From Kitasatospora cineracea (GTDB lineage: Bacteria > Actinomycetota > Actinomycetes > Streptomycetales > Streptomycetaceae): a stretch of DNA of 64,000 bases. Position 1 is the stretch's first letter; each line of letters opens with the position of its first letter. The position numbers and the translations under genes are program-made. The notes below the pieces were generated by a model that did no database searches, had not been told where the DNA came from, and saw nothing but the letters and a program-made list of their open reading frames with translations. Positions 15,497 to 32,560 of the stretch are shown here, piece after piece. Location: the NCBI RefSeq assembly GCF_003751605.1, contig NZ_RJVJ01000001.1, forward strand, positions 3,162,001 to 3,226,000, in the 5' to 3' direction.

Positions 15497-16774
15497 TCAG
15501 GCGGCCAGTCGGTAGCGCCGGCCGAGCGCCTTCCGGGCCTTCTCGAACGACTGGGCCACGCGGTGCACGTACCGGCGGAGGGTGAAGGCCGGGTCTTCGT
15601 GGCCGAGGAGATCGGCGAGCGTATAGATGTCGACCCCTTCGTTCAACGCCTCAGAAGCGAACAGGTGCCGGAGGGAGTGCATCATCTTGTCTCGGCACTT
15701 CTCCCACAGCCGGCCACGGCCCACCGGCTTGTCGTTCAGTGCCTGGATGAGCCCAATTTCTTCAAGGGCTGCCTTCCAGAGCCAGTTAAAGTAGTTCTTG
15801 TTGATCGGCTTCCGTTCGCGCGACGTGAAGAACAGCTTGACCGTGACGGGAGGGCCGTCCTTTTCAATCCAGGGAAGTGTGATTTCCACCGAGGGAAACT
15901 GTCGGATATGTTCGGCCAGAATGAAAGCCAGGTCCTCGCCGATCGGGACGTACCTATCCTTCGGATCATCCTTGCTTCCGCCCTTTGGTGGAGCGAACAC
16001 CATCACGCCGCGGTCGTGCGCAATCTGGCGGCGGATGTGCACCACCTTATCCTTCTGGAGCCAGTTAATGTCATCAGGGCTGAATGCGAATATCTCACCC
16101 TGTCGCATTCCGATGGCGCGACCGCAGTCGACAGTAGCCTTGTATCGGTCTGGCATGTTCTGCTTGATTCCTTCGGAATCTTCCCAGCTAACAGGGAGTT
16201 CCTTGGATGTCTTGCGCTGGCGGCGCGGCTTAACTCGCTGAACCGAGCGAGAGGCACACGGATTCTTGAGGATCAGTCCATCATCAACGGCCATCATGAC
16301 GATGGAGTTGAAGTGGCTGAAAATCAGGCCAGCGTAGGTCTCGCCGATGGTGCGGAGCATGCCCTTGATCCAGGAGACGATCCGCGAGGGGATCAAATCT
16401 TTGATCTTTATATGCCCCAGCGGCTCGATGATGTAGCGCTTTACGCGAGCGTGGTACTGCGGCTCAGTGCGAGGGTTCTTGAAGATGAGGTCGGCGAGCC
16501 ATTGCTCCGCCAGCTTCTTTATGAGGGTATCGCCCTTGTCTTTGGCGATGTAGGTGCCCTCGGTAACGCTCGTTTCAATCTTCGCCAAGTGCCTCTTGGC
16601 GTCCTCATACTTTTCGAAGCTTTCGCTTAGCTGCTGCCCGTCATGGTCCCGCCATCGGGCGAGCCAGCGCTTCCCCAATCCGTGGCTGCTCGACGGCACC
16701 TTCTTGTGGGCGGTGCACTTCTTTTCCCCGGGGGTCGGGCGCGACTTGTGCCAGCGGTCGTAAGGTTCAGACAC
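15497..16774 (-). CDS. int: Tyrosine recombinase (phage-type integrase)
   Basis: The protein has 425 residues from a GTG at 16774 preceded by GGTGGA. It has an N-terminal arm-binding region (KKVPSSSHGLGKRWLARWRDHDG), a SAM-like core-binding domain and a C-terminal catalytic domain. The catalytic domain shows the first arginine in GRAIGMRQGEIFAF (about residue 224), HxxR in MHSLRHLFASE (about 365), LLGHEDPAFTLRRY and the tyrosine nucleophile in RRYVHRV (about 402). All catalytic residues appear intact. Codon use is visibly less GC-rich than that of its neighbours, suggesting a separate origin. It sits at the border of the defence island and probably mobilises that island. The att site is not identified. 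Confidence 0.92.
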   Translation of the reverse strand: MSEPYDRWHKSRPTPGEKKCTAHKKVPSSSHGLGKRWLARWRDHDGQQLSESFEKYEDAKRHLAKIETSVTEGTYIAKDKGDTLIKKLAEQWLADLIFKNPRTEPQYHARVKRYIIEPLGHIKIKDLIPSRIVSWIKGMLRTIGETYAGLIFSHFNSIVMMAVDDGLILKNPCASRSVQRVKPRRQRKTSKELPVSWEDSEGIKQNMPDRYKATVDCGRAIGMRQGEIFAFSPDDINWLQKDKVVHIRRQIAHDRGVMVFAPPKGGSKDDPKDRYVPIGEDLAFILAEHIRQFPSVEITLPWIEKDGPPVTVKLFFTSRERKPINKNYFNWLWKAALEEIGLIQALNDKPVGRGRLWEKCRDKMMHSLRHLFASEALNEGVDIYTLADLLGHEDPAFTLRRYVHRVAQSFEKARKALGRRYRLAA

Positions 16775-16931: not shown

Positions 16932-17474
16932 TTAAAGCGATTGGGAGGGGCGTGACGCTTGCCCGGGAATCGGGCGGATGCCGAGCGCGGGGTGGTAGGG
17001 CAAGAGACCTTCGTGGACACCAAACTCGAAGACTCGCTTCAATGTCGCGAGGACTCGGTTGATCGTGCTGACGCCCAGGCGCCCCTCGGCGTAGAGCCTG
17101 TACCTCAGCTGCTCGATGTCCGCCCGGGTGATCGTGGCGGCACGCCGGGCTCCGAGGCTCGGGAGCACGTGCAAGTCGAGCGTTCGGCGACTCGGGAGCT
17201 GCGGTTGACCGGGCCGGCCGCGGTCTAGAGGGGTCGCTGCCCACTGGTCCACCAAGCGGTCGAGGGTCAGCGGCGGCCGTTCATGCACGATGTTGGCCTG
17301 CGCAGCCCTCGCGAGCGGCCAGCTCGGCAGGCTCACGCTGCGGAGGACTCCTGCTTCGTCACGCCAGCGGACGCGGTAGCGGGAGGGTGGGGTGCGGCGG
17401 GCCGCGCGGGCACGGGCGACGGCCAGCTGGTAGTCCGCGTGGTTAGCGCGGTCCTCGATTCGTGCGTGGATCAT
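16932..17474 (-). pseudogene. Truncated tyrosine recombinase (N-terminal and core-binding part only)
   Basis: The 180-residue frame begins MIHARIEDRANHADYQLAV. It contains an arm-type segment (SRYRVRWRDEAGVLRSVSLP) and a core-binding domain (LTLDRLVDQW... STINRVLATLKRVFEFGVHEGLLPYHPALGIRPIP). It stops exactly where the catalytic domain of such integrases should start; no R, HxxR or Y motif follows. It lies downstream of the XRE repressor and upstream of the intact integrase on the same strand. The simplest reading is an older element integrase whose catalytic half was lost. A stand-alone DNA-binding role is possible but less likely. Confidence 0.7.
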
Positions 17475-17612: not shown

Positions 17613-18227
17613 CTATGCGGAGCTGGAGTCGCCCGGCCGGAGCAGGGCGGCGAGTTCCTCGGGGGAGGCGCCGGCCTCGACGGCGGTGGTCAGCTTCTCC
17701 ATGGTCGCTGCCATGTTGGAGTTGAACGCCTCGGTCAGCACGGCCGCCCGTTCTTCGAGCACCGACCTTGTGAGGTCGGCGACGGACTGCTGGCTGTCAG
17801 CGGCCGGCAGCCGCTGGAGAGCCGCGGAGTAGAACTGGCGGGCGTCGCTTCCGGGAAGCGCCTGTTGTCCGCAGAACCAGGCCAGGATCAAGCTGCCGTC
17901 GCTGAGCGCCAGTTGGGGAGTCAGCTGTAGTTGAGTCCCCGGCTCGGCATTGTCGGGCAACCCCAGGAGGTGGATGGGGGCCACGTCCAGCACGGCGGCC
18001 AGAAGTACGACCTCGTCCACCGACAGCTCCCGCCGCCGAACCCCGTTGTCGTCTCGGCGTCCGGTCTCGATGTTCGCCAATGCGGCGGCGGTCAGCTTCT
18101 CCGCCCCTGCTTCGGCGCACCGGGTTGCCAGATCCTTGACGGTCCACCCGCGCCTGTTCCGGGCCTGCTTCAGCCGGAGTGCTGCCGCGTCGCTCACCGA
18201 CAGGGTCGGTGGTGAGCCGCTGGACAT
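17613..18227 (-). CDS. XRE-family repressor of the integration/excision module
   Basis: The protein has 204 residues. Its N-terminal HTH (LRLKQARNRRGWTVKDLATRCAE... LTAAALANIETGRR) is of Cro/C1 type, followed by DEVVLLAAVLDVAPIHLLGLP, as in many Streptomyces element repressors. The C-terminal half is helical and Ala/Glu-rich. It is divergent from two excisionase-like genes, and the 254-bp gap between them carries five matching operator-like sites, so it probably represses both its own gene and the excisionase promoter. It is followed on the same strand by the truncated integrase. Confidence 0.8.
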   Translation of the reverse strand: MSSGSPPTLSVSDAAALRLKQARNRRGWTVKDLATRCAEAGAEKLTAAALANIETGRRDDNGVRRRELSVDEVVLLAAVLDVAPIHLLGLPDNAEPGTQLQLTPQLALSDGSLILAWFCGQQALPGSDARQFYSAALQRLPAADSQQSVADLTRSVLEERAAVLTEAFNSNMAATMEKLTTAVEAGASPEELAALLRPGDSSSA

Positions 18228-19797: not shown

Positions 19798-20844
19798 TCA
19801 TGACGGGACGATGCGGCGGAACGCCACGGCCTCCGCGTCCCAGTACCCGCCGGTGAAGGTGGTGATCTGGATGTTCTTCCCGGTGCGCGGCGCGTCGAGG
19901 ACCAAGTTCGAGCCCAGGTACATGCCGACGTGGCCGGGCGACGAAGGGGTTCCGTCGGACCCGGCGAGGAAGATCAAGTCGCCCGGTTTGAGCTGGTTGG
20001 CGCTGTAGACCGGGGTTCCGTTGTAGACCTGCTCGAAGGTGGTCCTGCTGATGTTGATCCCGGCGGCCTCGTAGGCGCGCATCAGCAGGCCGGAGCAGTC
20101 GTAGCTCGGATTCCCCGTCCCTCCCCACTGGTACGGCATGCCGAGCTTCGAGATGCCGAAGGTGATCGCGGTGACCACCTGGACCGGAGTGCCGGCCGGG
20201 AGAGAGAAGCCCGCGGGCAGGTTGACCGCCTCGGTGATCGCCTCCCCGGAGCCCGCGCCGTTGCCGAGAGAGCAGTTGGTGGCCGAGCCTCCGAACGTTG
20301 CGACCAGCTGCTGCGCCAGGCCCTCCCACTTTGCGTAGGCATCGGGATAGGCGCTCTGCTGAACCTTCTGCGCAGCGACGGTGACCGGCAGTGCCTCCCA
20401 CAAGGAGACCTTCACCAACTGGGCGTAGAACGCCTTGGAGGAGTAGACCGGGTCCATGATCTGCGCAGGGGTGCCCCACCCCTGGCTCGGCCGCTGCTGG
20501 AACAAGCCCAAACTGTCGCGGTCACCCCAGGCCAGATTGGTCAAGGTGCTCTCCTGCATCGCCGTTGCGATGGCCACCACCGCGGCATGGGCAGGGAGCT
20601 GGAGCTGGACCGACACCTGGTAGATGATCTGGGCGTTGTTGATCTGCTCGGTGGTCAGCTGCTGGCCGTCGGCGACCGCTTCGCCGGGCGCCACCGGCTT
20701 GAAGCAGCCGATTCCTCCGATGCCGCTCCCCGCAGCGATCGCAGGGGTCGTCGCCGACGCGGTCCCGCCGGTCAGTGTCACGCCGAGCACCACACCGCAT
20801 GGCGCGAGGACCGACACGATGGCTATCTGAGCTGCCTTCTTCAC
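19798..20844 (-). CDS. Secreted lytic transglycosylase + NlpC/P60 peptidase (VirB1-like)
   Basis: I chose GTG 20844 (348 residues) because GAGGTG lies six bases upstream. It has a signal peptide (VKKAAQIAIVSVLAPCGVVL... GGTASA). A lysozyme-like domain follows (IATAMQESTLTNLAWGDRDS with catalytic Glu, then LGLFQQRPSQGWG). The C-terminal NlpC/P60 domain has Cys in YDCSGLLMRA, His in PGHVGMYLG and the third residue near LDAP. Such bifunctional peptidoglycan hydrolases open the wall for conjugation machinery in Gram-positive bacteria. It is transcribed away from the secretion operon, but its promoter is a near copy of the operon's promoter. Confidence 0.9.
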   Translation of the reverse strand: MKKAAQIAIVSVLAPCGVVLGVTLTGGTASATTPAIAAGSGIGGIGCFKPVAPGEAVADGQQLTTEQINNAQIIYQVSVQLQLPAHAAVVAIATAMQESTLTNLAWGDRDSLGLFQQRPSQGWGTPAQIMDPVYSSKAFYAQLVKVSLWEALPVTVAAQKVQQSAYPDAYAKWEGLAQQLVATFGGSATNCSLGNGAGSGEAITEAVNLPAGFSLPAGTPVQVVTAITFGISKLGMPYQWGGTGNPSYDCSGLLMRAYEAAGINISRTTFEQVYNGTPVYSANQLKPGDLIFLAGSDGTPSSPGHVGMYLGSNLVLDAPRTGKNIQITTFTGGYWDAEAVAFRRIVPS

Positions 20845-20882: not shown

Positions 20883-20984
20883 TTCACATCAGCTAATGGA
20901 TTGGTGTCAAACCATAGGCTGATGCGTCTGCCATTGGTCAACCAAAGTAAACGTGATGATCGACACTTCTTAGCTGATGTGAAA
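20883..20984 (-). promoter_or_regulatory. Promoter of the NlpC/P60 gene with paired operators
   Basis: On the minus strand, -35 TTGACC (20936-20941) and -10 TATGGT (20911-20916) are 19 bp apart. The 12-mer ACTTTGGTTGAC across the -35 is shared with the secretion-operon promoter near 22000. Downstream of the -10 is CCATTAGCTGATGTGAA (20883-20899). Its core recurs inverted upstream, giving a perfect 15-bp inverted repeat, TTTCACATCAGCTAA (20882-20896) with TTAGCTGATGTGAAA (20970-20984), that brackets the promoter. Confidence 0.7.
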
Positions 20985-21041
20985 GATGCGGGCGTCGTGG
21001 TGGCGGCAGGCCGATGGCGCGGCGCGGTCTGCCGACGTCGA

Positions 21042-21287
21042 TCAGTGGCCGAGGATGTGCTGGAGGGCTGCGGGGGCGAGGTCGGGGAAGGCGGCGGCCA
21101 GTGCGGCCGGGACGAGCGCGGTCGGCATGGTGGCCGAGGGGTGGGGGTCGAGGGTGGCCGACCTGTCGGCGATCGAAGCCGGCCGCACCGAGGCGGCTTC
21201 GCGACGACTGGCGACGACGCGAAGAACGACCTGTGCCGACGTCGGGTGCGGCCCTCCCTGTCGGGCCTCGCAGCGGATCGCGCTCAT
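21042..21287 (-). CDS. Small hypothetical protein
   Basis: The protein has 81 residues from ATG 21287 (MSAIRCEARQGGPHPTSAQ), with GGGAGG about 12 bases upstream. It is Ala/Pro-rich and ends FPDLAPAALQHILGH. No family is recognised. Its ribosome-binding site lies within a strong hairpin, so translation may be controlled, or the frame may not be expressed. Confidence 0.4.
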   Translation of the reverse strand: MSAIRCEARQGGPHPTSAQVVLRVVASRREAASVRPASIADRSATLDPHPSATMPTALVPAALAAAFPDLAPAALQHILGH

Positions 21288-21289
21288 GG

Positions 21290-21316
21290 AAGTGCCTCCC
21301 TGGTCGGGAGGCACTT
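21290..21316. promoter_or_regulatory. 11-bp hairpin covering a ribosome-binding site
   Basis: AAGTGCCTCCC (21290-21300) pairs perfectly with GGGAGGCACTT (21306-21316) around a TGGTC loop. In minus-strand RNA the stem contains the GGGAGG serving the frame starting at 21287. It may be a translational switch or simply a terminator downstream of the regulator gene ending at 21436. Confidence 0.5.
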
Positions 21317-21435
21317 GCTGTGAGGTGACGTAGTCATCCGGTCACCCGCCCCCGACTCGCAGAAGCGTATGCGAACGATTGCCGAGAGTGTGGCGGGTGT
21401 ATGAAGTTGTGATGATCCGGTGATGGTGGCGTGCG

Positions 21436-21879
21436 TCACTCGCCATCGCCGTCGGCGGGGTCCAGCCCCTCGATCCGACGGGCGGATTGGATCATGGTCA
21501 ACATGGCGTGCAGGCTGTTGTCGGAGAGCCCGTTTGCGGTGAGCGCCAACTGTCGAACGAGGGGGTTCGTCAGGGCGGCTGCGAGTTCCAGTTGCTCGTC
21601 GGTCCGCCGGGCCGTGTCGTCCTCGTAGAAGTAGGCCACCGGGACGCCGAAGAAGTCGGCAAGTGCCGTGAGGCGGCTGTGGGTTGGGTCCGTCCGCTTG
21701 CCGGTCTTCAGCTGCCACAAGTAGGTGGGGCTGAGGATCTGCTCCCCGGCCTTCTCGTTGATCGCCTTTGCGACCTCGGTGGTGCTGTAGGGCTTCCGGC
21801 CGGCGGGGTGGACGGTGCTGAACAGGTGGGTGAGTCGCTCGGCGACCACACCGCCCTCGGCGGGGTTCTCGTCAGACAT
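21436..21879 (-). CDS. EspR-like XRE regulator
   Basis: The protein has 147 residues from ATG 21879 (MSDENPAEGG). The upstream ATG at 21939 has no ribosome-binding site. The HTH region LTHLFSTVHPAGRKPYSTTE...AKAINEKAGEQILSPTYLWQLKTGKRTDPTHSRLTALADFFGVPVAYFYEDD closely follows the EspR/XRE layout of actinobacterial regulators, with a helical C-terminus for dimerisation. It lies between the two promoter regions that share the TTAGC...GTGAA operators, so it is the natural candidate regulator of the conjugation genes (inference). Confidence 0.8.
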   Translation of the reverse strand: MSDENPAEGGVVAERLTHLFSTVHPAGRKPYSTTEVAKAINEKAGEQILSPTYLWQLKTGKRTDPTHSRLTALADFFGVPVAYFYEDDTARRTDEQLELAAALTNPLVRQLALTANGLSDNSLHAMLTMIQSARRIEGLDPADGDGE

Positions 21880-21934
21880 GACGCGCGTAGCACTCCTCTC
21901 GGCTGACCGGGCCTCATCGTTGCGCACAGTGACG

Positions 21935-22049
21935 CCCATTAGCCAGAGAAAACAGAGAGTGTTGGGGTGAGCCTCCTCACATTCACTTTGGTTGACGGAA
22001 CTACTTCACTCCTGCCTATCGTTTGGCCACAGCCCATTAGCCAGAGTGA
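21935..22049 (+). promoter_or_regulatory. Promoter/operator region of the type IV secretion operon
   Basis: -35 TTGACG (21992-21997) and -10 TATCGT (22017-22022) are 19 bp apart. The repeat CCCATTAGCCAGAG occurs at 21935-21948 and again at 22033-22046, where it continues TGAA. The -35 context ACTTTGGTTGAC (21985-21996) and the post -10 element are homologous to those of the NlpC/P60 promoter near 20900. The 5' leader to the first gene at 22179 is about 150 nt. Confidence 0.7.
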
Positions 22050-22178
22050 ATCGCACCGACTTGACGTGCTGAATCCGAAGCCAGGGCTTCCTGCCTCCCC
22101 GCCAATCGAGTCGGGGTGGCTCCTCGTAGCCAGCAGGCCGTTGAGGCGGCTGGCGCGTCCGTAATTCTGGGAGCCTCC

Positions 22179-22478
22179 ATGTCCACTACTGCGCATGTCG
22201 TCCAGTTCCTCGCCGACATCCAGAACCCCGCGCCGGCCGATCCGACCAACGGCTCCAAAGGCGCGAACTTGCTTCTGTCGTACGCCAAGTGGGGGGCGCT
22301 CATAGCCTGTGCCGTCGCGGCCGTCGTGTCCGGTGGCCTCATGGGAATCGGCCACCTGAGCAACCGGCCCGACTCGGCGGAGAAGGGCAAGCGCTCCCTC
22401 GTGTGGAGCTTGGGCGGCGTGATCGTGACCGCGTGCGCCATCCCGGTGGTCAACACGGTCTTCGGCGCCGCGGCCTAG
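22179..22478 (+). CDS. Pilin/VirB2-like small membrane protein
   Basis: The protein has 99 residues from ATG 22179 (MSTTAHVVQFLADIQNPAP). It has two hydrophobic helices, YAKWGALIACAVAAVVSGGLMGIG and SLVWSLGGVIVTACAIPVVNTVFG, joined by a short basic loop. This is the plan of VirB2/TrbC-like pilin subunits of Gram-positive type IV secretion clusters. It is the first gene of the operon, 13 bp before the next. The assignment rests on size, topology and context. Confidence 0.6.
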   Translation: MSTTAHVVQFLADIQNPAPADPTNGSKGANLLLSYAKWGALIACAVAAVVSGGLMGIGHLSNRPDSAEKGKRSLVWSLGGVIVTACAIPVVNTVFGAAA

Positions 22479-22491: not shown

Positions 22492-23244
22492 ATGAACCAG
22501 TTCCTCGACCGCCGTCCGCGTCGGCGGATTCTTCCGCTCCTGCTCCTCGGCATCTTCGTCTTCCTGGCCGCCATCGGCGTAGGAGTCGCGATCGAGTCGG
22601 ACAACGGGCCGCGTGGGCCCAAGACCTACTCGCCGCCAGCCGCGATCCCGGCTCCGGGTTCGGTCACCGGCATCGACCCCAACGCCGAGTCCACTTCACC
22701 CGCCCTTGCCGGGCCGCTCCAGCTCATTCGCGGAGCACGCCTGGTCAACGGCGTCGCGGTGGGCTACCCACACTCCAGCGTAGGCGCGGTGTCGGCGGCG
22801 GTCGAGTACTGGCGTCAACTCGGCTCCACCCTGGAACCGGACCGGGCCGCAGCAGTCGCCCGGGTTGTCGCCGACGCCGACTGGTCCGACGCGCCGGACA
22901 CCCTTGCCAAGGGGCCGGCCGCCACGCGGAAGGCGCTCCGGCTACCGGCGAGCGGTCAGCTCGACCCCGGCACGTCCGTCACGTTGAACCCGGTCGAGTA
23001 CCAGGTCCGCTCCGTCGGCGCCGACAGCATCCAGGTGCTGCTCCTGTCGACCTACACGACCAGCGTGCCGGGCACCGGAATGCAGACCCGCATGGGTGTC
23101 TACCCGCTCGACCTCGTCTGGTCCGGCGGCGACTGGCGCATTCCCGCACCCTCCGGGACGTCCACCACCGACTACACCAGCCTTGTCGCCGAGCCGGGCA
23201 GCGCCCAGGCGTCGGCCAAGGGCTGGAACGAATTGAAGCGATAA
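22492..23244 (+). CDS. Single-pass membrane protein, VirB8/TcpC-like
   Basis: The protein has 250 residues. A cytoplasmic basic N-terminus (MNQFLDRRPRRR) precedes one transmembrane helix (ILPLLLLGIFVFLAAIGVGVAI) and an extracytoplasmic domain of about 210 residues containing GAVSAAVEYWRQLGSTL and SVGADSIQVLLLSTYTTSV... VYPLDLVWSGGDWRI. The latter resembles NTF2-like folds of VirB8/TcpC conjugation proteins. No catalytic motif is seen. It is expected to be a scaffold of the transfer channel. Confidence 0.6.
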   Translation: MNQFLDRRPRRRILPLLLLGIFVFLAAIGVGVAIESDNGPRGPKTYSPPAAIPAPGSVTGIDPNAESTSPALAGPLQLIRGARLVNGVAVGYPHSSVGAVSAAVEYWRQLGSTLEPDRAAAVARVVADADWSDAPDTLAKGPAATRKALRLPASGQLDPGTSVTLNPVEYQVRSVGADSIQVLLLSTYTTSVPGTGMQTRMGVYPLDLVWSGGDWRIPAPSGTSTTDYTSLVAEPGSAQASAKGWNELKR

Positions 23245-23281
23245 CCATCATGGCCAGCACCACGAGCACCAGGAGGCCGGC

Positions 23282-25126
23282 ATGCCCTGCGGCCTGACCG
23301 ACCCTGTCGGCTGCGTCACCGACACCGTCCTCGGCGGCCTGGCGGGCGACGCCGTCGGCAAGATGGCGACCTCCGCGTGGGAGTCGATCTGCAAGTCCTT
23401 CGCCGACGCGATGGTCGAGTTGTTGAAGACCTTCTCCGGCGCCTTCGTGAAGATGCCCGGCCCCGACCTCGCGTCCAACGGAGTGCGGAGCGTCTACGCC
23501 ATATCCCTGGGCGTGGCTGCTCTGGTGGCCTGCCTGCTGGTCATCGGACAGGTGGTCCGTACCGCCGTCACCCACGACGGCCGGCCCCTTGCGACCGCGG
23601 CGGTGGGCCTCGGCAAGGCGGTGCTCGCCTTCATGCTCACCCTGATCGTCGCGTCCACCACGTTGGTGGCCAGCGACGAGCTGACCAAGTACATCGTGGA
23701 CAGCACGCTCGGCGGTCAGCAGGCGTTCAGCGACAAGATCGCCAAGCTCGTGGCGTGGAACCCCGGCAACTCGGTCTCCCTGCTGCTGATCCTGGCGATC
23801 ATCGGCATCCTGCTGACCTTGGTGCTCTGGTTCGAGATGCTGCTGCGGGGCGCGGCCATCGCGGCGCTCATCGCGACCTCGCCGATCAGCGCGGCTGGCC
23901 AGGTCTCGGACTCCACCAAGACGTGGTGGTCGAAGCTCGTCTCGATGACGATCCAGCTGATCATCTTGAAACCGATCATCGCGCTCGTCTTCGCCCTGGG
24001 GTTCAACCTCGCAGGTGACAGCCAGGACTTGAACAGCACGCTGTCCGGGATGCTCGTCCTGCTGCTGGCTGCGCTCGCCTGGCCGGCCGTCGCCCGCTTC
24101 TTCACCTTCGCCTCAGTCCAGGTCGGGGGCGGCGCAGGACTCGCCGCGCTGCTCGGCTTCGCTGGAGGCCGTCTCAGCACAGCCGGCGGCCCGCCGACCG
24201 GCGCCTCCCCGGATACCTTCGGGCAGGACAGCGCTACCCGGACGATGACGAACTTCGCCAGCAAGGGCGGAGGTGCTGCCGGAGGCGCTGCTACCGGTGG
24301 TGCCGGGGGAGCGGGGGCTGCGGCGGGTGGCGCCGGTGCCGCTGCGGGCCCGATCGGCATGGCCGCCGCGGCCGGTGTGCGACTCGCTCAGCAGGCCGTC
24401 AACAGCCTCGCCCAGGGGATGGAGAAGATGGCTGGCCACGCGGGAGCGCAAGGAGCGAACCCCTACGCAGCTCAGCCAGCGGGCTACGTCAACCGTCACG
24501 CGGGGGCTCAGCTTCCCACCAGCGGATACCTGCCGGACCAGCCGAAGCCGGACTGGTCCGGGCAGCAGGAGCAACAGCCCGAACCCGCCGAGCCGGCCGC
24601 CCAGCAGGCCGACCACCAGCAGGCACTCCAGGACTCGACCCCGGACTTGCCGGTCGCCAGCGCACCGCGCTCCGACCCCCCGACGATCGAGATGCCCCCG
24701 GTTCCCGCTGGGCCGCCTGCTGGCTCAGCGGCAGCCAGTGCCGCGCCGCTGCCCGGCCCCGTGCCGCAGGGTGGCAGCGGTTCGGCCTCCCCCCTCGGGG
24801 CATCGCATCCCGGCAGCCCGGGACCGACGGCCAGCGCTCCCGGCACGTCGGCGGCTCCCCCCGCCGAGGCGCAGGCGCCGGCCGCCGCAGGGTCGCCGAC
24901 CGCCGCCGCGGCGGCTCCCTTGAACACCAGTCGGCCAGCTCCCGCCGTGCAGACTACGGCGACCCCGGGGCAGGCGGACCGCATGCCGGCCCGGCCGCCA
25001 GCCGCCAATCCCGGCTCGGTGAGTCCCGAGGTCGCCCCCACCGAGCGTCCCGCCGACCCGCCCCAGGCCGCGCCGCCTGCGACTTCCACCCCCGCTGACC
25101 AGCCCGAAGGAGGCGACCAGACGTGA
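23282..25126 (+). CDS. TrbL/VirB6-like polytopic channel protein with Pro-rich tail
   Basis: The protein has 614 residues. At least six hydrophobic segments occupy residues about 75-290, for example VYAISLGVAALVACLLVIGQVV, AVLAFMLTLIVASTTLVA, LLLILAIIGILLTLVLWFEMLLRGAAIAALIA and IALVFALGFNLAG. A Gly/Ala-rich stretch and a disordered, Pro/Ala/Ser-rich C-terminal tail of about 200 residues follow. This is the topology of TrbL/VirB6 inner-membrane channel proteins. It overlaps the next gene by four bases (GTGA). Confidence 0.75.
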   Translation: MPCGLTDPVGCVTDTVLGGLAGDAVGKMATSAWESICKSFADAMVELLKTFSGAFVKMPGPDLASNGVRSVYAISLGVAALVACLLVIGQVVRTAVTHDGRPLATAAVGLGKAVLAFMLTLIVASTTLVASDELTKYIVDSTLGGQQAFSDKIAKLVAWNPGNSVSLLLILAIIGILLTLVLWFEMLLRGAAIAALIATSPISAAGQVSDSTKTWWSKLVSMTIQLIILKPIIALVFALGFNLAGDSQDLNSTLSGMLVLLLAALAWPAVARFFTFASVQVGGGAGLAALLGFAGGRLSTAGGPPTGASPDTFGQDSATRTMTNFASKGGGAAGGAATGGAGGAGAAAGGAGAAAGPIGMAAAAGVRLAQQAVNSLAQGMEKMAGHAGAQGANPYAAQPAGYVNRHAGAQLPTSGYLPDQPKPDWSGQQEQQPEPAEPAAQQADHQQALQDSTPDLPVASAPRSDPPTIEMPPVPAGPPAGSAAASAAPLPGPVPQGGSGSASPLGASHPGSPGPTASAPGTSAAPPAEAQAPAAAGSPTAAAAAPLNTSRPAPAVQTTATPGQADRMPARPPAANPGSVSPEVAPTERPADPPQAAPPATSTPADQPEGGDQT

Positions 25127-26664
25127 GCACTCAAACCGCTCCCAACCGCACCTACTTCGGCTGGCAGCAGGAGAAGGTCGCCTTCCTCTTCGGCCTGAGC
25201 GTCCAGCGGGCGGCCATGCTCGGCGGCGCGGTCCTGGCGACGATCTGGCCGTTCGCAATCTCGTACGTCCGGGCGGGCCTCGTGACGTGGCCCGTTGCCT
25301 TTGTCCTCTTCCTACTTGCGTTCGTCCGGATCGCCGGCCGCACCGTTGACGAATGGGCGGTGTCCTTCGTGTCCTTCGAAATCCTCAAGTTCCGTGGGCA
25401 GAATCGTTTCCTCGCCGGTGCCTTCTCGCCGCGCAAGGCCACCACGGACGAGCCGAAGATGGACCTGCCGGGCATCCTCGCGCCGCTGTCGATCCTCGAA
25501 GCGGACGGCGGCAGCGGCGACCCGATCGCGGTGATCCACCACCAGCTCGACCGGACCTTCACCGCCGTCGCCCGGGTGCGCTTCCCCGGCATCGGACTGG
25601 TCGACTCCCAGCGGCGCGACCAGCGTGTGGCCAGCTGGGGCGAGCTGCTCAACTCGCAGTGCACGGAAGGAAATCCGATCATCCGCATCCAGGCGCTCCA
25701 GCGCCTGGTCCCCGAGTCCGGCGCCGCGCTCCAGCGCTGGCACGCCGACCACGTCTCCGACGAGGCCCCCGGCGTCGCGGTGGACATCACCAAGTCACTG
25801 CTCTCCACCGCCACCCTGGCGACCAGCCAGCGCGAGGCGTACCTGGCGATCACCATGGACGCCGCCCGGGCGGCCGGCCCCATCAAGGCGGCCGGTGGCG
25901 GCACCGCCGGAGCCGCCACCGTCCTGATCCGCCACCTGCGGGCCCTCACCTCCGGTATCGCCTCCGCGGACCTCCAGGTGGAGAGCTGGCTGAACCCGCG
26001 CGAACTCGCCGAGGTCCTGCGGACCGCGTTCGACCCGCACTCCAGCCGAATGCTCGCCGAACGCCGGGCCGCCGCCGCGGCCGCCGCCTTCCGAGGCCAG
26101 GACGTGCCCTTCGAACCGGGCGTCGACCCGGTCGCGGCGGGCCCCTCCGCCGCCGAGAGTTGGCGCGGCCGGTACGAGCACGACGGCGCGCTCTCCGTCA
26201 CCTACGCCGTCCGGAACTGGCCCAAGAACAAGATCTACTCCACAGCGCTCTCCCCGCTGCTGGGCGAAGGCAAGTACCGCAGGGCGTTCAACCTTCACAT
26301 CGAACCCCGCGGACCGCGCGCCGCCGAGCGCGAGGTCATGCAGGAACGCACTGCCCGCGAGGTTGCCGTCAGCATGCGGCACAAGACCGGCCAGATCATC
26401 CCGGAGCACGAGAAGCAGGCACTGCGGCACGCCGAAGCCCAGGACCAGGAGCGCGCAGCCGGCCACGGCCTTGTCCGCTACACCGCCTACTGCACCGTCA
26501 CCGTCACCAACCCGGCTGACCTCGAAGACGCCTGCGCCGCGCTGGAGGCCGACGCCAACCAGGGCCGGATCGAAGTCCAGCGGATGTGGATGGCCCAGGA
26601 CATCGGATTCGCCCTCGGCGCGCTGCCCGTCGGCATGGGCCTGCCCCGGAAGCGGGTGGCCTGA
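25123..26664 (+). CDS. SCO6880-family conjugation protein
   Basis: The protein has 513 residues from a GTG overlapping the previous stop. Two PrgI-like membrane helices near the N-terminus (AAMLGGAVLATIWPFAISYV and PVAFVLFLLAFVRIAG) are followed by a large cytoplasmic part with repeated alpha/beta segments (DRTFTAVARVRFPGIGLVDS, YTAYCTVTVTNPADLEDAC) that resemble the N-terminal domain of VirB4 without the motor. This combination is the Streptomyces SCO6880 family, found upstream of VirB4-like ATPases. It shares a TGATG junction with the ATPase gene. Confidence 0.75.
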   Translation: MSTQTAPNRTYFGWQQEKVAFLFGLSVQRAAMLGGAVLATIWPFAISYVRAGLVTWPVAFVLFLLAFVRIAGRTVDEWAVSFVSFEILKFRGQNRFLAGAFSPRKATTDEPKMDLPGILAPLSILEADGGSGDPIAVIHHQLDRTFTAVARVRFPGIGLVDSQRRDQRVASWGELLNSQCTEGNPIIRIQALQRLVPESGAALQRWHADHVSDEAPGVAVDITKSLLSTATLATSQREAYLAITMDAARAAGPIKAAGGGTAGAATVLIRHLRALTSGIASADLQVESWLNPRELAEVLRTAFDPHSSRMLAERRAAAAAAAFRGQDVPFEPGVDPVAAGPSAAESWRGRYEHDGALSVTYAVRNWPKNKIYSTALSPLLGEGKYRRAFNLHIEPRGPRAAEREVMQERTAREVAVSMRHKTGQIIPEHEKQALRHAEAQDQERAAGHGLVRYTAYCTVTVTNPADLEDACAALEADANQGRIEVQRMWMAQDIGFALGALPVGMGLPRKRVA

Positions 26665-28154
26665 TGTTCCGCCAACGTTCGACCGACCTCCCCGTCCTCG
26701 ACCTGACCGACGTGCTCGGCCGGCCGACCCCGGTCGCCCCGAAGCCCGCCAAACAGAAGGCGCCCAAGCAGCGCCGCGAGCCGGTCGCGCCCCGGCGCGG
26801 CTACGCCCGGCCCTTCGCCGGCCGGTCCCCCCGGATGCCGGAAATCCCGGTCTTCCGAGGCAGCACCGGCCAGGTCCAGGGTCTCTACCCCTGGCTGTAC
26901 GGGGCCTCGATGCCCCCCGCCGGGGCCTACATCGGCGTCGACTGCTTGGCCGGAGGCGCTTTCTCCTGCCATCCGATCGAGTGGCTGCACCGCGGACTGA
27001 TCACCAACCCGAACCTGCTGGTGACCGGCGTGCCCGGCACCGGCAAGTCGGCGACGGTCAAGGTCCTCGCCACCAGGCTCGCCGCCTACGGTGTACGCAC
27101 CTTCGTGCTCGGCGACATCAAGAACGAGTACGCACCGCTGGCCAGGGCGTTCGGTGTCGAGCCCGTCGAGCTTGGCCCCGGCTTGCGTAACAGGTTGAAC
27201 CCGCTGGACGCCGGGCCGTTGGGCGCGAACCTGCCGGCCGACCCGGAGGAGCTGCGCGAGCGCCTGGACGAAGTCCACCGGCGCCGAATCACCCTGCTGT
27301 CCTCTCTGCTGGTCATGCGGCTCGGCCGCAACCTCACGCCCACAGAGGAAGCCGCACTCTCCCTGGCGATCAAGCACGCCTCCGGCCAGGCCACCGGCGC
27401 CAGCCACCTCCAGGACCCGACGATCCCGCAGGTGTGGGCCCTGCTGCGCGACCCGCTACCCGAGATGGCGGAGGACCTCCGCGTCCGTGACGCCGACGTG
27501 AGCGAGCTGAGGGAGATGATCCGGCCGGCCGCCGACGCCCTCGGCAACATGGTCCGCGGAAGCCTCAGCGGTCTGTTCGACGGACCGACCACCGTCCGTC
27601 CCGACTTCGCCGCACCGATCCAGACCGTCGACCTCTCCCGGATCGACGGCCGCGGTGACGAGACCGTTGCCATGACCCTGGCCTGCGTCAGCAGTTGGGG
27701 CCAGGCCGCGATCGACGAGCCCGGCGGCCCCGTCCGCCTGGTCGTCCGCGACGAGCTGTGGCGCGCGATGCGCGTTCCCGCGATGATCCGCAAGCTCGAC
27801 TCCGACCTCCGGCTCTCCCGCGCGCAGGGCACCATCCAGGTCCTCAGCACGCACCGGCTTGCCGACTTCGAGGCCGTCGGCGCCCAGGGCAGCGAAGAGG
27901 TCAGCATCGCCCGCAACCTCATCGCGTCCTGTGACGTGCGGATCTGCCTGCGCCAGGACACCGCGCCGCTCGCCATGACGAGGGACGCCATCGGCCTCAC
28001 CGACACCGAGTGCGCGCACATCGCCAGTTGGTCGGGTGAGCAGATCGGCCGCGCGATCTGGAAGATCGGCCGGACCAGCTCCCATGTGGTCCAGACCATC
28101 CTCAGCCCGATCGAGCGGCAGCTCTACTACACCAACGAGCGAATGGCCGTGTGA
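26664..28154 (+). CDS. VirB4/TraC-like conjugation ATPase
   Basis: The protein has 496 residues from ATG 26664. Walker A is LLVTGVPGTGKSATVKVLA (about residue 120). The segments RTFVLGDIKNEYAPLARAFG and RLVVRDELWRAMR (Walker B-like, about 365), and VLSTHRLADF, are arranged as in VirB4/TraC ATPases. The bulky N-terminal VirB4 domain is missing from this protein, and its upstream partner (25123-26664) appears to supply it. It energises assembly of the transfer channel. The start is fixed by the TGATG overlap. Confidence 0.85.
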   Translation: MFRQRSTDLPVLDLTDVLGRPTPVAPKPAKQKAPKQRREPVAPRRGYARPFAGRSPRMPEIPVFRGSTGQVQGLYPWLYGASMPPAGAYIGVDCLAGGAFSCHPIEWLHRGLITNPNLLVTGVPGTGKSATVKVLATRLAAYGVRTFVLGDIKNEYAPLARAFGVEPVELGPGLRNRLNPLDAGPLGANLPADPEELRERLDEVHRRRITLLSSLLVMRLGRNLTPTEEAALSLAIKHASGQATGASHLQDPTIPQVWALLRDPLPEMAEDLRVRDADVSELREMIRPAADALGNMVRGSLSGLFDGPTTVRPDFAAPIQTVDLSRIDGRGDETVAMTLACVSSWGQAAIDEPGGPVRLVVRDELWRAMRVPAMIRKLDSDLRLSRAQGTIQVLSTHRLADFEAVGAQGSEEVSIARNLIASCDVRICLRQDTAPLAMTRDAIGLTDTECAHIASWSGEQIGRAIWKIGRTSSHVVQTILSPIERQLYYTNERMAV

Positions 28155-29968
28155 TGGCCGCCGCCTCGAACTCGACCGTCGCCCGGCGGCCAGTGCTGGA
28201 CGGTCCAGCGGACTACCTGATCGTGGCGCTGATCATCGTCGTCGTCACCGTCACCGTCGGTACCTGGGCCACCGGCCAGATTGCGGGCCTGATCACCCAC
28301 GCCGCGTGGCCCGCCGTCCCGTTCGGTGAAGCATTCGCCGTCGCCAAGCAGATCCCCCAGCACCTGGACGACCCGAAGTTGGCCTGGCCTGAGCAGGCCA
28401 GGGCCGACCTGCCCGGTCCGGTCGGCTTCGCCGTCGCCACCGCCATCGTCGTCTGCATGATGATCACGGCAGGAGGCTTCGCCCTTCGCCGGCTGCGGCG
28501 CAACCGGTCCGTGCGCGGCTACGCCTCCCCGGCCCAGCTGGCGAAGACGATGTCCGCTGCGGCGGTGGTCCGACGCGGACCGATCGTGCGGCCCTCCCTC
28601 AAGGGGAGCCGGATCAAGGCCGCCGACGTCGCCGTGCAGCTCGGCCGAACCATGGCGGGGATGCTGCTGTGGGCCTGCATCGAGTCGTCGGTGCTGATGC
28701 TCGCAGCTCCTCGCCAGGGCAAGACCTCCCAGGTGATCATCCCGTGGATCAAGGCATGGCGGGGGCCGATGCTGGTCACCAGTGTCCGCGGCGACCTGCT
28801 CGACGCGACCGCGCTGATCCGGCGGAAGCTCGGCCCCACCCTGGCGATGACGCCGACCGGCATGGTCGAGTGGCCGGACCAGGTCCAGTGGTCGCCGGCC
28901 AGCGGATGCGCCGACTTCGGCAAGGCGATGCAGCGGGCCGACCTGATGGTCAGGATCGGCAAGAGCGAGACGTCCGACTCCAGCGGCGCGGGTTTCTTCG
29001 GCGCCACCGCGACCAGCCTGCTGGCGGCCTGGCTGCACGCCGCCGAGATCACCGACAACTCCATGGAGGACGTTCTCCGCTGGGCGTTCAACCCCCATGT
29101 GGAGGAGCCGATCAAGCTGCTCGCGGAGTCCCGCCGGGCGGAACCCGGCGTCGCCGAGATGCTCGACGCGCTGTACCGGCAGCCCGGAGAGACCCGTGCG
29201 AACCTCTTCAGCACGGTCCAGACCGCGCTGACCCCGCTGTTCTCGCCGCTGGCCCGCCGCACCTTCGTCCCAAAGACCGGCAACAGCATCGACATCGAGG
29301 CGTGGTTGCGGAGCAACGGGACCATCTACTTGCTGGTCGACAAGGAGGACTCCAAGGCGCTCGCGCCGCTGATCTCGGCGTTTGTCTCCGAGGTCTTCGG
29401 CACGGCCAAGCGAATCGCGGACCGCTCGCCGGGCGGCCGGCTCGACCCCCCGCTGGGTGCTCTGCTGGACGAGGTCGCCAACGTCACCCCGCTGCCGAAC
29501 CTCCCCGACCTGATGTCCTTCGCGGGCGGCTCGGGCATCTACGTCCTGGCCGTCCTTCAGAACATGGCCCAGGCCCGCACCATCTGGGGACACGACGGCG
29601 CCGAGATGCTCTGGGGCAGCTCCACCATCAAGATCGCCCTCGGCGGCCTGGGCGGTGCCGAACTCGAAGAATTCTCGAAGCTGGCCGGCATCTACCGCGA
29701 GTCCCTGACCACCTACCAGAGCGGCAGCCACGGCACCACGATGCAGACCACCCTCCAGGACCGTAAGACCGTCACCCCGGACGAGATCCGCACCTTGGAC
29801 GAGGAGAAGCGCGAGGCGCTGGTCATCCACGCCACCACACCCCTCGCCAAGGTCCGGATGCTGCGCCACTACGAAGGCCCGGACCGGAAGGCGTACGAGG
29901 AGAGCGTTCAGTGGGCACGCCGATACCGAGCCGGGGAACTCGACCCGACCGAGGTGGTGGCCGCGTGA
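28154..29968 (+). CDS. VirD4/TraG-type coupling ATPase
   Basis: The protein has 604 residues from ATG 28154; a GTG at 28151 is also possible. Two N-terminal membrane helices (YLIVALIIVVVTVTVGTWATG and FAVATAIVVCMMITAGGFAL) are followed by Walker A MLAAPRQGKTSQVIIPW, the segment PMLVTSVRGDLLDAT, Walker B LGALLDEVANVTPLP and the late motif GIYVLAVLQNMAQA. This is the coupling protein that brings the DNA-relaxase complex to the secretion channel. No relaxase gene is visible nearby, so the substrate is unknown. Confidence 0.88.
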   Translation: MAAASNSTVARRPVLDGPADYLIVALIIVVVTVTVGTWATGQIAGLITHAAWPAVPFGEAFAVAKQIPQHLDDPKLAWPEQARADLPGPVGFAVATAIVVCMMITAGGFALRRLRRNRSVRGYASPAQLAKTMSAAAVVRRGPIVRPSLKGSRIKAADVAVQLGRTMAGMLLWACIESSVLMLAAPRQGKTSQVIIPWIKAWRGPMLVTSVRGDLLDATALIRRKLGPTLAMTPTGMVEWPDQVQWSPASGCADFGKAMQRADLMVRIGKSETSDSSGAGFFGATATSLLAAWLHAAEITDNSMEDVLRWAFNPHVEEPIKLLAESRRAEPGVAEMLDALYRQPGETRANLFSTVQTALTPLFSPLARRTFVPKTGNSIDIEAWLRSNGTIYLLVDKEDSKALAPLISAFVSEVFGTAKRIADRSPGGRLDPPLGALLDEVANVTPLPNLPDLMSFAGGSGIYVLAVLQNMAQARTIWGHDGAEMLWGSSTIKIALGGLGGAELEEFSKLAGIYRESLTTYQSGSHGTTMQTTLQDRKTVTPDEIRTLDEEKREALVIHATTPLAKVRMLRHYEGPDRKAYEESVQWARRYRAGELDPTEVVAA

Positions 29969-30717
29969 CACCCCGACCCGCTTGGAGCACAGGTGATCGC
30001 GAGGCGAGCACCGATGCCGACCACCGCTGGGAGTCCCGCTTCGACCGGCGGCACCACCAGGGACTGCTCCGCCGCCCCGATGCCCCGACCGACTGCACCC
30101 TCCGGTGGAGCGGACCGGTGCGAGGTATCGACGGCGCGCTGTACCACGCCGGCACCGATCACACCGGCGCTCCCGTCGTGACGGTGTTCAGCCCCGGCTA
30201 CCAGGAGACCGTCCCCGCTTTGTGGCCGACCGACGACTGGACCACCCACCGAGCCGACTCCGACGGCCCATTCCACCCGCTCAGCACCTGGCGCCCTACC
30301 CGAGCCGACTACGAGGACCTTGTCCTCGCATACCTCGCCCAGCGCCCGCGTGAACTCGCCGACCTCGGAACCTGGGTGCCGGTGGACGTCTTCACCACAC
30401 ACGTCCGGTACGGGATCTACGAGGCGATGCTGGCACTCCACACCGAGGCCGCTGCGGTGACCACCGAAGCCATCGAGGCCCGCGTCCGCCTGAGCATCAC
30501 GGCACTGTCCCCGCGCCTGGCCGCTCTGGTCACCAGCACGATGGACACCGCCTCCTACCTCCGCCGACTGCTGCTCACCCCCAGCACGTCGGTCGAGGCG
30601 CTCGACGCTGCCGTGCACCTGGTCATGACCGACTGGAAGGCCGTCGCCACCACCGCGCAGCCGAACTCCTCCGGGAACACCCGCACCCTGCCCGCTCAGC
30701 TCCAGGACCAGACATGA
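29965..30717 (+). CDS. Protein with a DnaB N-terminal-like domain, no motor
   Basis: The protein has 250 residues from a GTG overlapping the coupling-protein stop. After about 110 residues of unknown fold, the segment YEDLVLAYLAQRPRELADLG followed by DVFTTHVRYGIYEAML resembles the DnaB N-terminal dimerisation domain. No RecA-type ATPase motor follows. Two genes downstream encodes two more such domains. It may contact primase or the host replicative helicase (inference). Confidence 0.5.
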   Translation: MTPRPAWSTGDREASTDADHRWESRFDRRHHQGLLRRPDAPTDCTLRWSGPVRGIDGALYHAGTDHTGAPVVTVFSPGYQETVPALWPTDDWTTHRADSDGPFHPLSTWRPTRADYEDLVLAYLAQRPRELADLGTWVPVDVFTTHVRYGIYEAMLALHTEAAAVTTEAIEARVRLSITALSPRLAALVTSTMDTASYLRRLLLTPSTSVEALDAAVHLVMTDWKAVATTAQPNSSGNTRTLPAQLQDQT

Positions 30718-31535
30718 CCGAATCCGCGATCACGCCGATCGGCCGGGTCAAGCACCGCCCGCACGCCCGGATACGCCGACGCCGAACCGACAACACGGCC
30801 ACCAGCGTCAGCAAGACCGACTCGGCAGGCGCGAGCCCGCGTACCCGCCTGGTCGAGTGGCACACCATGACCGGTCCCGAGCGGGTCGTGGCGTGGGCCG
30901 GTCTCTGCGACTGGGTGACCTGGCTGCACGACCGCTACGAGCTGGCCGTGGAGTCGCGGCTGCCGCAGTGCTGGGCCGAGCACCCTGGGCTGATTGAGGA
31001 GCTCTGGGCACTCAAGGTCTGGCGGGAGGAGATCTACGGGGCGGGCGCAGACCAGCAGGTAGGACAAGCAGCCCGCTACTGGCACGCTGAGCTCCGCGCG
31101 GTGGTGGCCAACGCCACCGGCGTCTACGCCACGGCCTGCCGAACTGGCCACCGGGCTCCCGAGCTCCGAGCCGCCGATTCCCCGGACCTCCAGAAACGGT
31201 GGACCGAAGCCGATGCTTGGGCCGGGATTCCGGGCAAGCTGCTCGCCGCCCACGCGGACACCGCCGAAGCCGGCAGCCCCGACCGTCTCACCGCCGCCCA
31301 GATGGATGACGCCCGCTCCCGCGGCCTCGCCACGCCGATCAGCCCCGGCATCCCCGAGTACCTGCGATTCGCCGATGCCTGGTGGGCGGTCGAACTCGGA
31401 GGTGAGTGGCTGCGGGTCGCCAACGAGGAGCTACTGGAACGGCTCGATCAGGCGGCTGCCCGGATGGCAGCCGCTGACGACGCGGCTCGCCGCTACCGGG
31501 AAGCCACCACCGGATCTAAGTCAAGGACGAACTGA
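30714..31535 (+). CDS. Hypothetical protein, DUF4913-like
   Basis: The protein has 273 residues and starts at an ATG overlapping the upstream stop. The central region LCDWVTWLHDRYELAVES...PQCWAEHPGLIEELWALKVWREEIYG...ARYWHAEL has the Trp-rich pattern of DUF4913 proteins found in actinobacterial conjugation clusters. The C-terminus contains a helical, Ala-rich stretch (LLERLDQAAARMAAADDAARRY). The function is unknown. It lies inside the secretion operon with four-base overlaps on both sides. Confidence 0.55.
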   Translation: MTESAITPIGRVKHRPHARIRRRRTDNTATSVSKTDSAGASPRTRLVEWHTMTGPERVVAWAGLCDWVTWLHDRYELAVESRLPQCWAEHPGLIEELWALKVWREEIYGAGADQQVGQAARYWHAELRAVVANATGVYATACRTGHRAPELRAADSPDLQKRWTEADAWAGIPGKLLAAHADTAEAGSPDRLTAAQMDDARSRGLATPISPGIPEYLRFADAWWAVELGGEWLRVANEELLERLDQAAARMAAADDAARRYREATTGSKSRTN

Positions 31536-32560
31536 TGACCAACCCCGACCTCGCGCTGCGCGCCGAGCAGGCCGTCATCGGTGCCGCCCTGCGCGATCCC
31601 CAACAGCTCGACCAAATCGCCTACTTGACGCCCGACCGCATGGCCCACCCGACCAACCGGGCCCTGTTGGGCGCCCTGATCGAGTCGCGGACCAGCAACC
31701 CCGCGGCTCCCGCTACCCGAATGCCGGAACTGGTCGCCCAGAAGGCCGCCGTCCGGGGAGTCGGCGCGGACTACCTCCGGCGGCTTGCCGACGCGGCACC
31801 ACAGCCCCGGGCTATCGCGAGCTACGCCCGGCTCGTACAGGAAGCCGCGGTCCGACGCGACCTTGCACTCCATCTCGACCGACTTCGCGCGCCCAGCGCT
31901 GGTCAGCGCGGGCCGGAACCAGCTCTCGACCGGCTTACCCAGCGGCTCGAACAGGCCCCGTTGACGGCCAAGTTCAGCGAGCCGGCTCCCGAGCCGTACC
32001 AGCCGAGACCCCTGCCGGCCAACAGCCAGGAGGTTCGGCTCGACCTCCGGCTTGAGCGCCAGGACACTGTCCTCGCGGATCTCCTCCAGAACCCGGAGCA
32101 CATCCGGGAGGTGAGTGCCTGGCTCTACCCCGAGGCTTTCGAAGCGGGGCCACGACGGGAGGTCTATGAGGCCATCGTCGTGCTCGCTGAGCGCGGCGAC
32201 CCCGTCGACACGCTCACCGTCGAGTGGGAGGTGGACCGGCAGGACCCTGAGCGCTACGAAGTCAAGGTCGAGGTCATCGTGGAGGAACGTCCCGACTACC
32301 TCGCGAGGCTCGCCACCACAGCCGTTGTTGTCGGCGCTGCTGTTGAACTGGGTGGGGAGATCATGGCGGAGGACATTCGGGCAACGCTGGCGAACGATTT
32401 CGGCAGCATTGACGTGACCGCTCGCGGCCCGGGCGCAGAGCCGAAGCCGAGCCCGGACGTCAGGGTGACCGGGCCTGCTCCCCAAGTGGAGCCCGCCCCA
32501 CTTCTCCAACCGCCTCCGGCACAGCAGGCCCACGTCGTCCAGCCGAACGTCCGGCCGTGA
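31535..32560 (+). CDS. Tandem DnaB N-terminal-domain protein without helicase motor
   Basis: The protein has 341 residues. One DnaB-N-like domain lies at the N-terminus (RAEQAVIGAALRDPQQLDQI...AHPTNRALLGALIE) and a second at about residues 175-235 (RQDTVLADLLQNPEHIREV... RREVYEAIVVLAERGDPVDT). No Walker motifs are present. The tail is Pro/Gln-rich. Full DnaB is about 450 residues, so this is a family derivative, possibly an adaptor that recruits primase or competes with the host helicase on entering DNA (inference). Confidence 0.65.
   Translation: MTNPDLALRAEQAVIGAALRDPQQLDQIAYLTPDRMAHPTNRALLGALIESRTSNPAAPATRMPELVAQKAAVRGVGADYLRRLADAAPQPRAIASYARLVQEAAVRRDLALHLDRLRAPSAGQRGPEPALDRLTQRLEQAPLTAKFSEPAPEPYQPRPLPANSQEVRLDLRLERQDTVLADLLQNPEHIREVSAWLYPEAFEAGPRREVYEAIVVLAERGDPVDTLTVEWEVDRQDPERYEVKVEVIVEERPDYLARLATTAVVVGAAVELGGEIMAEDIRATLANDFGSIDVTARGPGAEPKPSPDVRVTGPAPQVEPAPLLQPPPAQQAHVVQPNVRP

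What the first reader, a model, noticed from the sequence alone, without database searches (positions are those of the whole stretch)
20883..22049. Homologous promoters coordinate the wall hydrolase and the transfer operon
Two promoters facing opposite directions, 1.1 kb apart, share ACTTTGGTTGAC, a 19-bp spacer, TAT-GT at -10 and CCATTAGC...GTGAA downstream. Four copies of the TTAGC element (20883, 20970, 21938, 22036) surround the EspR-like gene. This is a compact transfer switch that can be read directly from the sequence.
Basis: partly seen in the sequence, partly recalled or inferred. Interest (0 to 1): 0.65.

Follow-up and report, generated by a model that had tools for sequence, protein, structure and literature searches.

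The report
Paired promoters of a conjugation island
In a Kitasatospora mobile island, the DNA-transfer operon and its cell-wall-cutting enzyme start from two matching promoters with the same repeated operator; seven related loci keep the same layout, which makes a shared on/off switch, probably run by the small EspR-like protein encoded between them, very likely but not yet shown experimentally.

Summary
The NlpC/P60 wall-hydrolase promoter (minus strand, ~20883-20983) and the T4SS operon promoter (plus strand, ~21939-22050) align without gaps: 51 of 77 bases match, against at most 42 in 2,000 shuffles. Each has TTGAC-N20-TATNGT and a 14-bp operator, TTAGC-N4-GTGAA, downstream of the -10 box, with a second copy upstream. 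Seven orthologous loci (Kitasatospora, Streptacidiphilus, relatives) keep both promoters, 14 of 14 at near-fixed spacing, while the DNA between the motifs has diverged. A blind pattern scan of 84,980 genomes found only five of these loci plus three chance hits in AT-richer genomes. The gene between the promoters encodes a true EspR homologue (PDB 3r1f, E=7e-22), and the operator's first half resembles the published EspR consensus (TTTGC[TC][GA] versus TTAGC[TC][GA]). My reading: an autoregulated EspR-type repressor holds hydrolase and transfer apparatus off together, with a Crp-like input. Co-regulation is well supported; the binder's identity is likely; repression and looping are inferred. 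New variant of a known kind.

The parts
19798..20844 (-). NlpC/P60 wall hydrolase of the T4SS (start GTG chosen at 20844, after an SD-like GAGGTGG)
   Evidence: Pfam NLPC_P60 E=7.2e-24; divergent from the T4SS operon and conserved in all seven loci; start codon inferred from sequence
20883..20896 (-). Operator copy D of the hydrolase promoter, TTAGCTGATGTGAA, about +7 to +20
   Evidence: same offset (+45 from TTGAC) in 7/7 loci, z=7.9
20911..20916 (-). -10 box TATGGT of the hydrolase promoter (TSS not mapped)
   Evidence: TAT at fixed distance from -35 in 7/7
20937..20951 (-). -35 box TTGAC (20941-20937) overlapped by an inverted degenerate operator copy M (20951-20938)
   Evidence: M z=4.1 in hydrolase promoters
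20952..20966 (-). Degenerate CRP-like site (GTGTCGATCATCACG)
   Evidence: same offset (-25) as in the T4SS promoter, 41/63, z=4.9
20970..20983 (-). Upstream operator copy U of the hydrolase promoter, inverted (TTCACATCAGCTAA)
   Evidence: perfect inverted repeat with D; same offset (-42) in the 7 loci, 59/70 matches, z=6.6
21436..21879 (-). EspR-like regulator, 147 aa
   Evidence: EspR 3r1f/3qf3/4ndw, E about 1e-21 over residues 12-140; 49-64% identical orthologues between the promoters in 6 other loci
21939..21952 (+). Upstream operator copy U of the T4SS promoter (TTAGCCAGAGAAAA)
   Evidence: present in 5 of 7 loci, lost in the two Streptacidiphilus loci
21967..21981 (+). CRP-like site GTGAGCCTCCTCACA, centred about -56
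   Evidence: GTGA-N6-TCACA invariant in 7/7 loci (63/63, z=6.9); Streptomyces Crp motif GTG(N)6GNCAC quoted in PMC10033298
21982..21996 (+). -35 box TTGAC (21992-21996) overlapped by inverted operator copy M (21982-21995)
   Evidence: (I7)
22017..22022 (+). -10 box TATCGT of the T4SS promoter (TSS not mapped)
   Evidence: TAT at fixed distance in 7/7
22037..22050 (+). Operator copy D of the T4SS promoter, TTAGCCAGAGTGAA
   Evidence: same offset in 7/7 (one locus 2 bp longer), z=6.8
22179..22478 (+). Pilin-like first gene of the T4SS operon
   Evidence: weak Pfam T4SS_pilin E=5e-4; conserved
22492..32560 (+). Rest of the T4SS operon: unnamed gene, TrbL-like, SCO6880/EccE-PrgI-like, VirB4-like ATPase, VirD4 coupling protein, three downstream genes (two with DnaB-N-like domains)
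   Evidence: same order in relatives

Best explanation
The hydrolase gene and the T4SS operon of an integrated mobile island are a two-promoter regulon with a common operator, TTAGC-N4-GTGAA. The EspR-like protein encoded between them is the most likely binder. A dimer at copy D (just downstream of the start site) and one at upstream copy U, 87 bp apart at the hydrolase promoter and 98 bp apart at the T4SS promoter (an 11-bp difference, about one helical turn), would cooperate, probably by bridging as reported for M. tuberculosis EspR, and block RNA polymerase; the degenerate copy over the -35 would add to this. The conserved 19-bp spacer makes the promoters intrinsically weak. A CRP-like site at about -56 in the T4SS promoter would let host cAMP-Crp-type control raise expression once the repressor is relieved. 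The upstream copy U near espR suggests autoregulation. Shown: sequence, geometry, conservation, homology to EspR. Inferred: binding, repression, looping, Crp input, autoregulation, and the inducing signal (unknown).
For: Ungapped homology of the two promoters far above shuffles. All seven orthologous loci carry both promoters, 14/14 (one with TTGCT at the -35; one with a 2-bp longer gap), though spacer, gap and upstream DNA match only 32-39% between the two promoter types. Offsets D +45, U -42 or -53, CRP-like -25 stand out from all others, z 4.6 to 7.9. A blind scan of 84,980 genomes hit five of these loci, each with NlpC, EspR and T4SS genes, plus three unrelated hits in genomes of 34-43% GC. 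In two loci (S. tateyamensis G066 and G113) about 2 kb separates the hydrolase from espR, yet the promoter stays with the hydrolase. The -35 region co-varies within genomes (p=0.019), and the GTGAA to GTAAA change in those two loci occurs in both promoters. The EspR consensus TTTGC[TC][GA] and EspR bridging are published (PMC3315491).
Against: No binding or expression data. Co-variation is modest: D alone p=0.17, all regulatory positions p=0.055, and GTAAA is probably a single event in related loci; the -35 block was one of several blocks tested. The -35-overlapping copy loses its outer arm in four of seven loci. The upstream copy is lost in the T4SS promoter of both Streptacidiphilus loci. 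A related element upstream of other EspR-like genes is found in 9 of 44 cases at p<=0.05 (2.2 expected), and a hold-out test on 20 more gave only 3. Operator copy M at about -41 would also suit an activator.
Confidence: 0.6

Rival explanations
1. Same regulon and same protein, but the EspR-like protein is an activator, or a lambda-cI-like dual regulator: bound at the copy over the -35 (centre about -41) it recruits RNA polymerase to promoters weakened by a 19-bp spacer, and at high level represses through D.
For: 19-bp spacer conserved in 14/14 promoters; an inverted copy centred about -41, the usual activator position (general knowledge); M. tuberculosis EspR is described as a positive regulator of ESX-1/espACD (PMC3315491).
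Against: The copy over the -35 is degenerate in four of seven loci, while the downstream copy D is the best conserved, which suits a block rather than recruitment.
Confidence: 0.22
2. The two promoters are co-regulated, but by another protein (a second island regulator such as the HTH protein at 17613-18227, or a host regulator); the EspR-like gene is only a neighbour.
For: The same 14-mer, TTCACATCAGCTAA, is conserved in front of an MFS-MarR operon in 11 Kitasatospora genomes, most without the island; 17613-18227 is HTH-like and found in several of the loci; EspR-like genes elsewhere lack a clear common element.
Against: The operator resembles the EspR consensus; the EspR gene is between the promoters in all seven loci; the MFS site sits inside a TTAGTT...AACTA palindrome next to its own MarR gene, so it is best explained by MarR; the 17613 homologue was not seen in the fetched part of G087 and G131.
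Confidence: 0.15
3. Chance or plain ancestry: the promoters look alike only because of ordinary -35/-10 sequences or a past duplication, with no shared regulator.
For: The exact 12-mer alone is reached by 3 of 2,000 shuffles.
Against: Conservation of operators and spacings in seven divergent loci with unconserved DNA between; the pattern's near-uniqueness among 84,980 genomes.
Confidence: 0.03

Closest known systems
EspR of Mycobacterium tuberculosis and its espACD and espR sites (PMC3315491)
   Same: Homologous regulator over nearly its whole length; half-site TTTGC[TC][GA] against TTAGC[TC][GA]; multiple separated sites, some inverted, at promoters including its own; controls a secretion system
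   Different: Here the local targets are a T4SS operon and its wall hydrolase on a mobile island; full operator TTAGC-N4-GTGAA with near-fixed promoter geometry; EspR is a genome-wide nucleoid-associated protein with hundreds of sites, here only one further exact site was found in the genome
T4SS of Streptomyces plasmids (e.g. Streptomyces sp. NBC_01012 plasmid, L107)
   Same: Same divergent order: NlpC/P60 hydrolase, then pilin-like, TrbL, SCO6880 family, VirB4-like, VirD4 genes
   Different: No EspR-like gene between them, and the paired promoters were not seen in the 0.3-kb intergenic region (by eye)
XRE/cI-type control of mobile elements (ImmR of ICEBs1, lambda cI) and KorSA/Pra of pSAM2
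   Same: Element-encoded HTH regulator next to the promoters it is thought to control
   Different: From memory except pSAM2 (PMC3218068); different protein families and operators; here one operator serves a hydrolase promoter and a transfer promoter
Streptomyces Crp sites, GTG(N)6GNCAC (quoted in PMC10033298)
   Same: GTGA-N6-TCACA in the T4SS promoter fits the GTG...CAC frame; three of seven loci match the quoted motif exactly
   Different: The window's own copy has C where the motif has G; no binding test

Membership tests
EspR regulator family | Sequence homology over the HTH and the C-terminal dimerisation domain | tested here: met
   phmmer 12-140 of 147 against 8-134 of EspR 3r1f, E=7.4e-22
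EspR regulator family | Binding site of the EspR type TTTGC[TC][GA] | tested here: inconclusive
   Conserved element TTAGC[TC][GA] differs at one position; binding itself not testable
EspR regulator family | Dimer-of-dimers bridging of separated sites | not testable with these tools
   Only site spacing is available: 87 and 98 bp
Gram-positive-type conjugative T4SS | VirB4-like ATPase, VirD4 coupling protein, TrbL/VirB6-like channel, wall hydrolase | tested here: met
   the VirB4 call rests on weak partial matches plus 57% identity to plasmid T4SS-cluster ATPases
Integrative conjugative element | Integrase and relaxase in the same element | tested here: inconclusive
   Tyrosine integrase at 15497-16774; MobF/TrwC relaxase about 11 kb beyond the window; element ends not determined
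Crp/CRP regulon | TGTGA-N6-TCACA-like site at a promoter | tested here: met
   GTGA-N6-TCACA in 7/7 T4SS promoters
Crp/CRP regulon | Binding by the cAMP-Crp protein | not testable with these tools
   none

The most novel reading that the evidence does not exclude
An EspR-type architectural protein bridges its four operator copies, including across its own 1.1-kb gene region, into one closed complex that silences hydrolase and T4SS promoters together, with Crp opening only the T4SS side: a nucleoid-protein-style lock on conjugation carried by the element itself.
Probability: 0.2. Interest if true: 0.6.

Novelty: new variant of a known kind. Interest (0 to 1): 0.5.

Why it matters
Regulation of T4SS-type conjugation in streptomycete relatives appears little described (my literature searches, in an open-access library only, found nothing on it). 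A complete predicted regulon with one regulator, two targets, exact operators and seven natural variants can be tested with one gel-shift and one reporter experiment, and gives an EspR homologue a defined local operator outside mycobacteria.

Tried and rejected
The search for related loci with the regulator in genome contigs found nothing. Searching the unnamed operon gene across the phylum gave only distant hits. A family-wide EspR operator was tested: the first test, with a profile that included the -35 copies, looked strong (25 of 44 at p<=0.05), but the TTGAC box inflates it; without them 9 of 44, and a hold-out gave 3 of 20, so it is not claimed. EspR-like genes on plasmids: the two neighbourhoods opened held no T4SS. 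The fourth exact genomic copy of the operator (G000:C1:5563637) was followed and is best explained as a MarR site. The sigma-70 scan does not list these promoters because it allows spacers of 16-18 only.

Full report
SETTING. The window lies in a Kitasatospora-type genome of 8.76 Mb (G000:C1:3162001-3226000; the genus is inferred from named relatives). A tyrosine integrase lies at 15497-16774, an NlpC/P60 wall hydrolase at 19798-20844 (minus), an EspR-like regulator at 21436-21879 (minus), and a T4SS operon from 22179 to about 32560 (plus).

THE OBSERVATION. Both promoters are as described, with a few coordinates off by one base. They align without gaps over about 100 bp; in the best 77-bp stretch 51 positions match, against a maximum of 42 in 2,000 shuffles. 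The TTAGC elements are the left arms of a 14-bp pseudo-palindrome, TTAGC-N4-GTGAA. Two copies form a perfect 15-bp inverted repeat around the hydrolase promoter; two form a 15-bp direct repeat around the T4SS promoter. In the 64-kb window the full element occurs only here.

CONSERVATION. Searching the regulator in related genomes gave six further loci in which espR lies between a divergent NlpC gene and T4SS genes: G023 (Kitasatospora phosalacinea), G026 (Streptomyces rubellomurinus), G066 (S. tateyamensis), G113, G087 (Streptacidiphilus jeojiense; contig ends after the pilin gene) and G131 (Streptacidiphilus sp. 4-A2); names come from contigs of equal length. All have both promoters: TTGAC-N20-TATNNT-N14-TTAGCYRNNGTRAA, with these exceptions: the G113 hydrolase promoter has TTGCT at the -35, the G026 T4SS promoter has N16, and the G023 hydrolase operator ends GTGTA. 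The spacer, the stretch between -10 and D, and the upstream DNA match only 32-39% between the two promoter types, whether within or between genomes, so the motifs are kept by selection, not by recent duplication.

BLIND SCAN. The pattern TTGAC-N20-TATNNT-N13-16-TTAGCYRNNGTRAA, searched without reference to any protein, hit nine stretches in 84,980 genomes. Six stretches are five of these loci, with the hydrolase, EspR and T4SS genes at hand; three are in sequence of 34-43% GC with no related genes, i.e. chance.

GEOMETRY. Scoring every offset over the seven loci: the downstream copy D starts at +45 from TTGAC in both promoter types (z=7.9 and 6.8). The upstream copy U starts at -42, inverted, in hydrolase promoters (z=6.6) and at -53, direct, in T4SS promoters (z=4.6; absent in the two Streptacidiphilus loci). 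U to D is thus 87 and 98 bp, a difference of 11 bp. A weaker inverted copy overlaps the -35 (z=4.1 and 3.3). A CRP-like GTGA-N6-TCACA is invariant at -25 in all seven T4SS promoters (63/63), and a degenerate version lies at the same offset in hydrolase promoters (41/63, z=4.9).

THE REGULATOR. It is homologous to EspR over residues 12-140 (PDB 3r1f, E=7.4e-22). EspR binds TTTGC[TC][GA], in multiple and sometimes inverted copies, bridges separated sites, and binds its own promoter (PMC3315491). The element here, TTAGC[TC][GA], differs at one base.

CO-VARIATION. Within-genome similarity of the two promoters exceeds between-genome similarity in the -35 block (0.78 against 0.68, p=0.019 over all 5,040 pairings), not in D alone (p=0.17) nor in the spacer, gap and upstream controls (p 0.56 to 0.84). 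G066 and G113 carry GTAAA instead of GTGAA in both promoters. This supports one shared binder but is modest, and those two loci are close relatives.

MECHANISM. Operators just after the inferred start site and over the -35 fit repression; the U-D spacing fits cooperative or bridging binding; the 19-bp spacer fits a weak promoter that needs help, possibly from Crp at the T4SS side. An activator reading remains open because the -35 copy is centred at about -41. None of this has been measured.

RIVALS. The strongest challenge to EspR as binder is a fourth exact operator copy, conserved in 11 Kitasatospora genomes upstream of an MFS gene. It lies inside a TTAGTT...AACTA palindrome, and the next gene is a MarR regulator, so I take it as a MarR site with a chance overlap, not as a target of the island regulator; this is a judgement, not a test. 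A general EspR-family operator was tested and not established.

NOVELTY. Streptomyces plasmids carry related T4SS with the same divergent hydrolase but, in the one examined, no EspR gene and no paired promoters. I found no paper on this regulation (open-access library only). It is a new variant of a known kind: an element-encoded HTH regulator with a two-promoter regulon.

Noticed in passing
window 4835-13891 and 1980-3266: A likely anti-phage defence island beside the integrase: HmaA/HmaB/HmaC-like helicase, methylase and ATPase, and a pPIWI-RE-type REase domain protein.
   Followed up: partly
G000:C1:5563637 (L141:5638-5651): Exact copy of the operator 14-mer in front of an MFS transporter followed by a MarR gene, conserved in 11 Kitasatospora genomes; all 11 also have a chromosomal EspR-like gene of about 33% identity. 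Probably a MarR site.
   Followed up: partly
window ~21922-21933: TCACTGTGCGC between the T4SS promoter and espR is invariant in all seven loci, even where the nearby operator copy is lost; perhaps the espR promoter or another site. Unexplained.
   Followed up: partly
window 16932-17474: A 180-aa protein resembling only the N-terminal/central part of a tyrosine integrase, next to a full integrase, conserved in several relatives, so probably not decay.
   Followed up: no
window 29911-32560: Genes at the end of the T4SS operon with DnaB-helicase N-terminal-like domains, an odd companion for a transfer operon.
   Followed up: no
G000:C1:3236977-3238125 and G000:C2:4944-6092: Two MobF/TrwC-type relaxase genes with equally long open frames (1,697 aa), one about 11 kb right of the window and one near a contig end.
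   Followed up: no
L063 ~1700-3600 and L064 ~10450-12500: About 2 kb of extra DNA between espR and the hydrolase in two relatives, with the hydrolase promoter kept beside the hydrolase.
   Followed up: no
L067:8198-9696: More distant relative (G096): EspR-like gene divergent from the unnamed operon gene, with TTGAC-N20-TATCGT-N14 followed by TTTTACTACAGTGAAA in place of TTAGC...GTGAA.
   Followed up: partly
window 21290-21316: Perfect 11-bp hairpin AAGTGCCTCCC/GGGAGGCACTT between espR and the hydrolase promoter, possibly the espR terminator.
   Followed up: no
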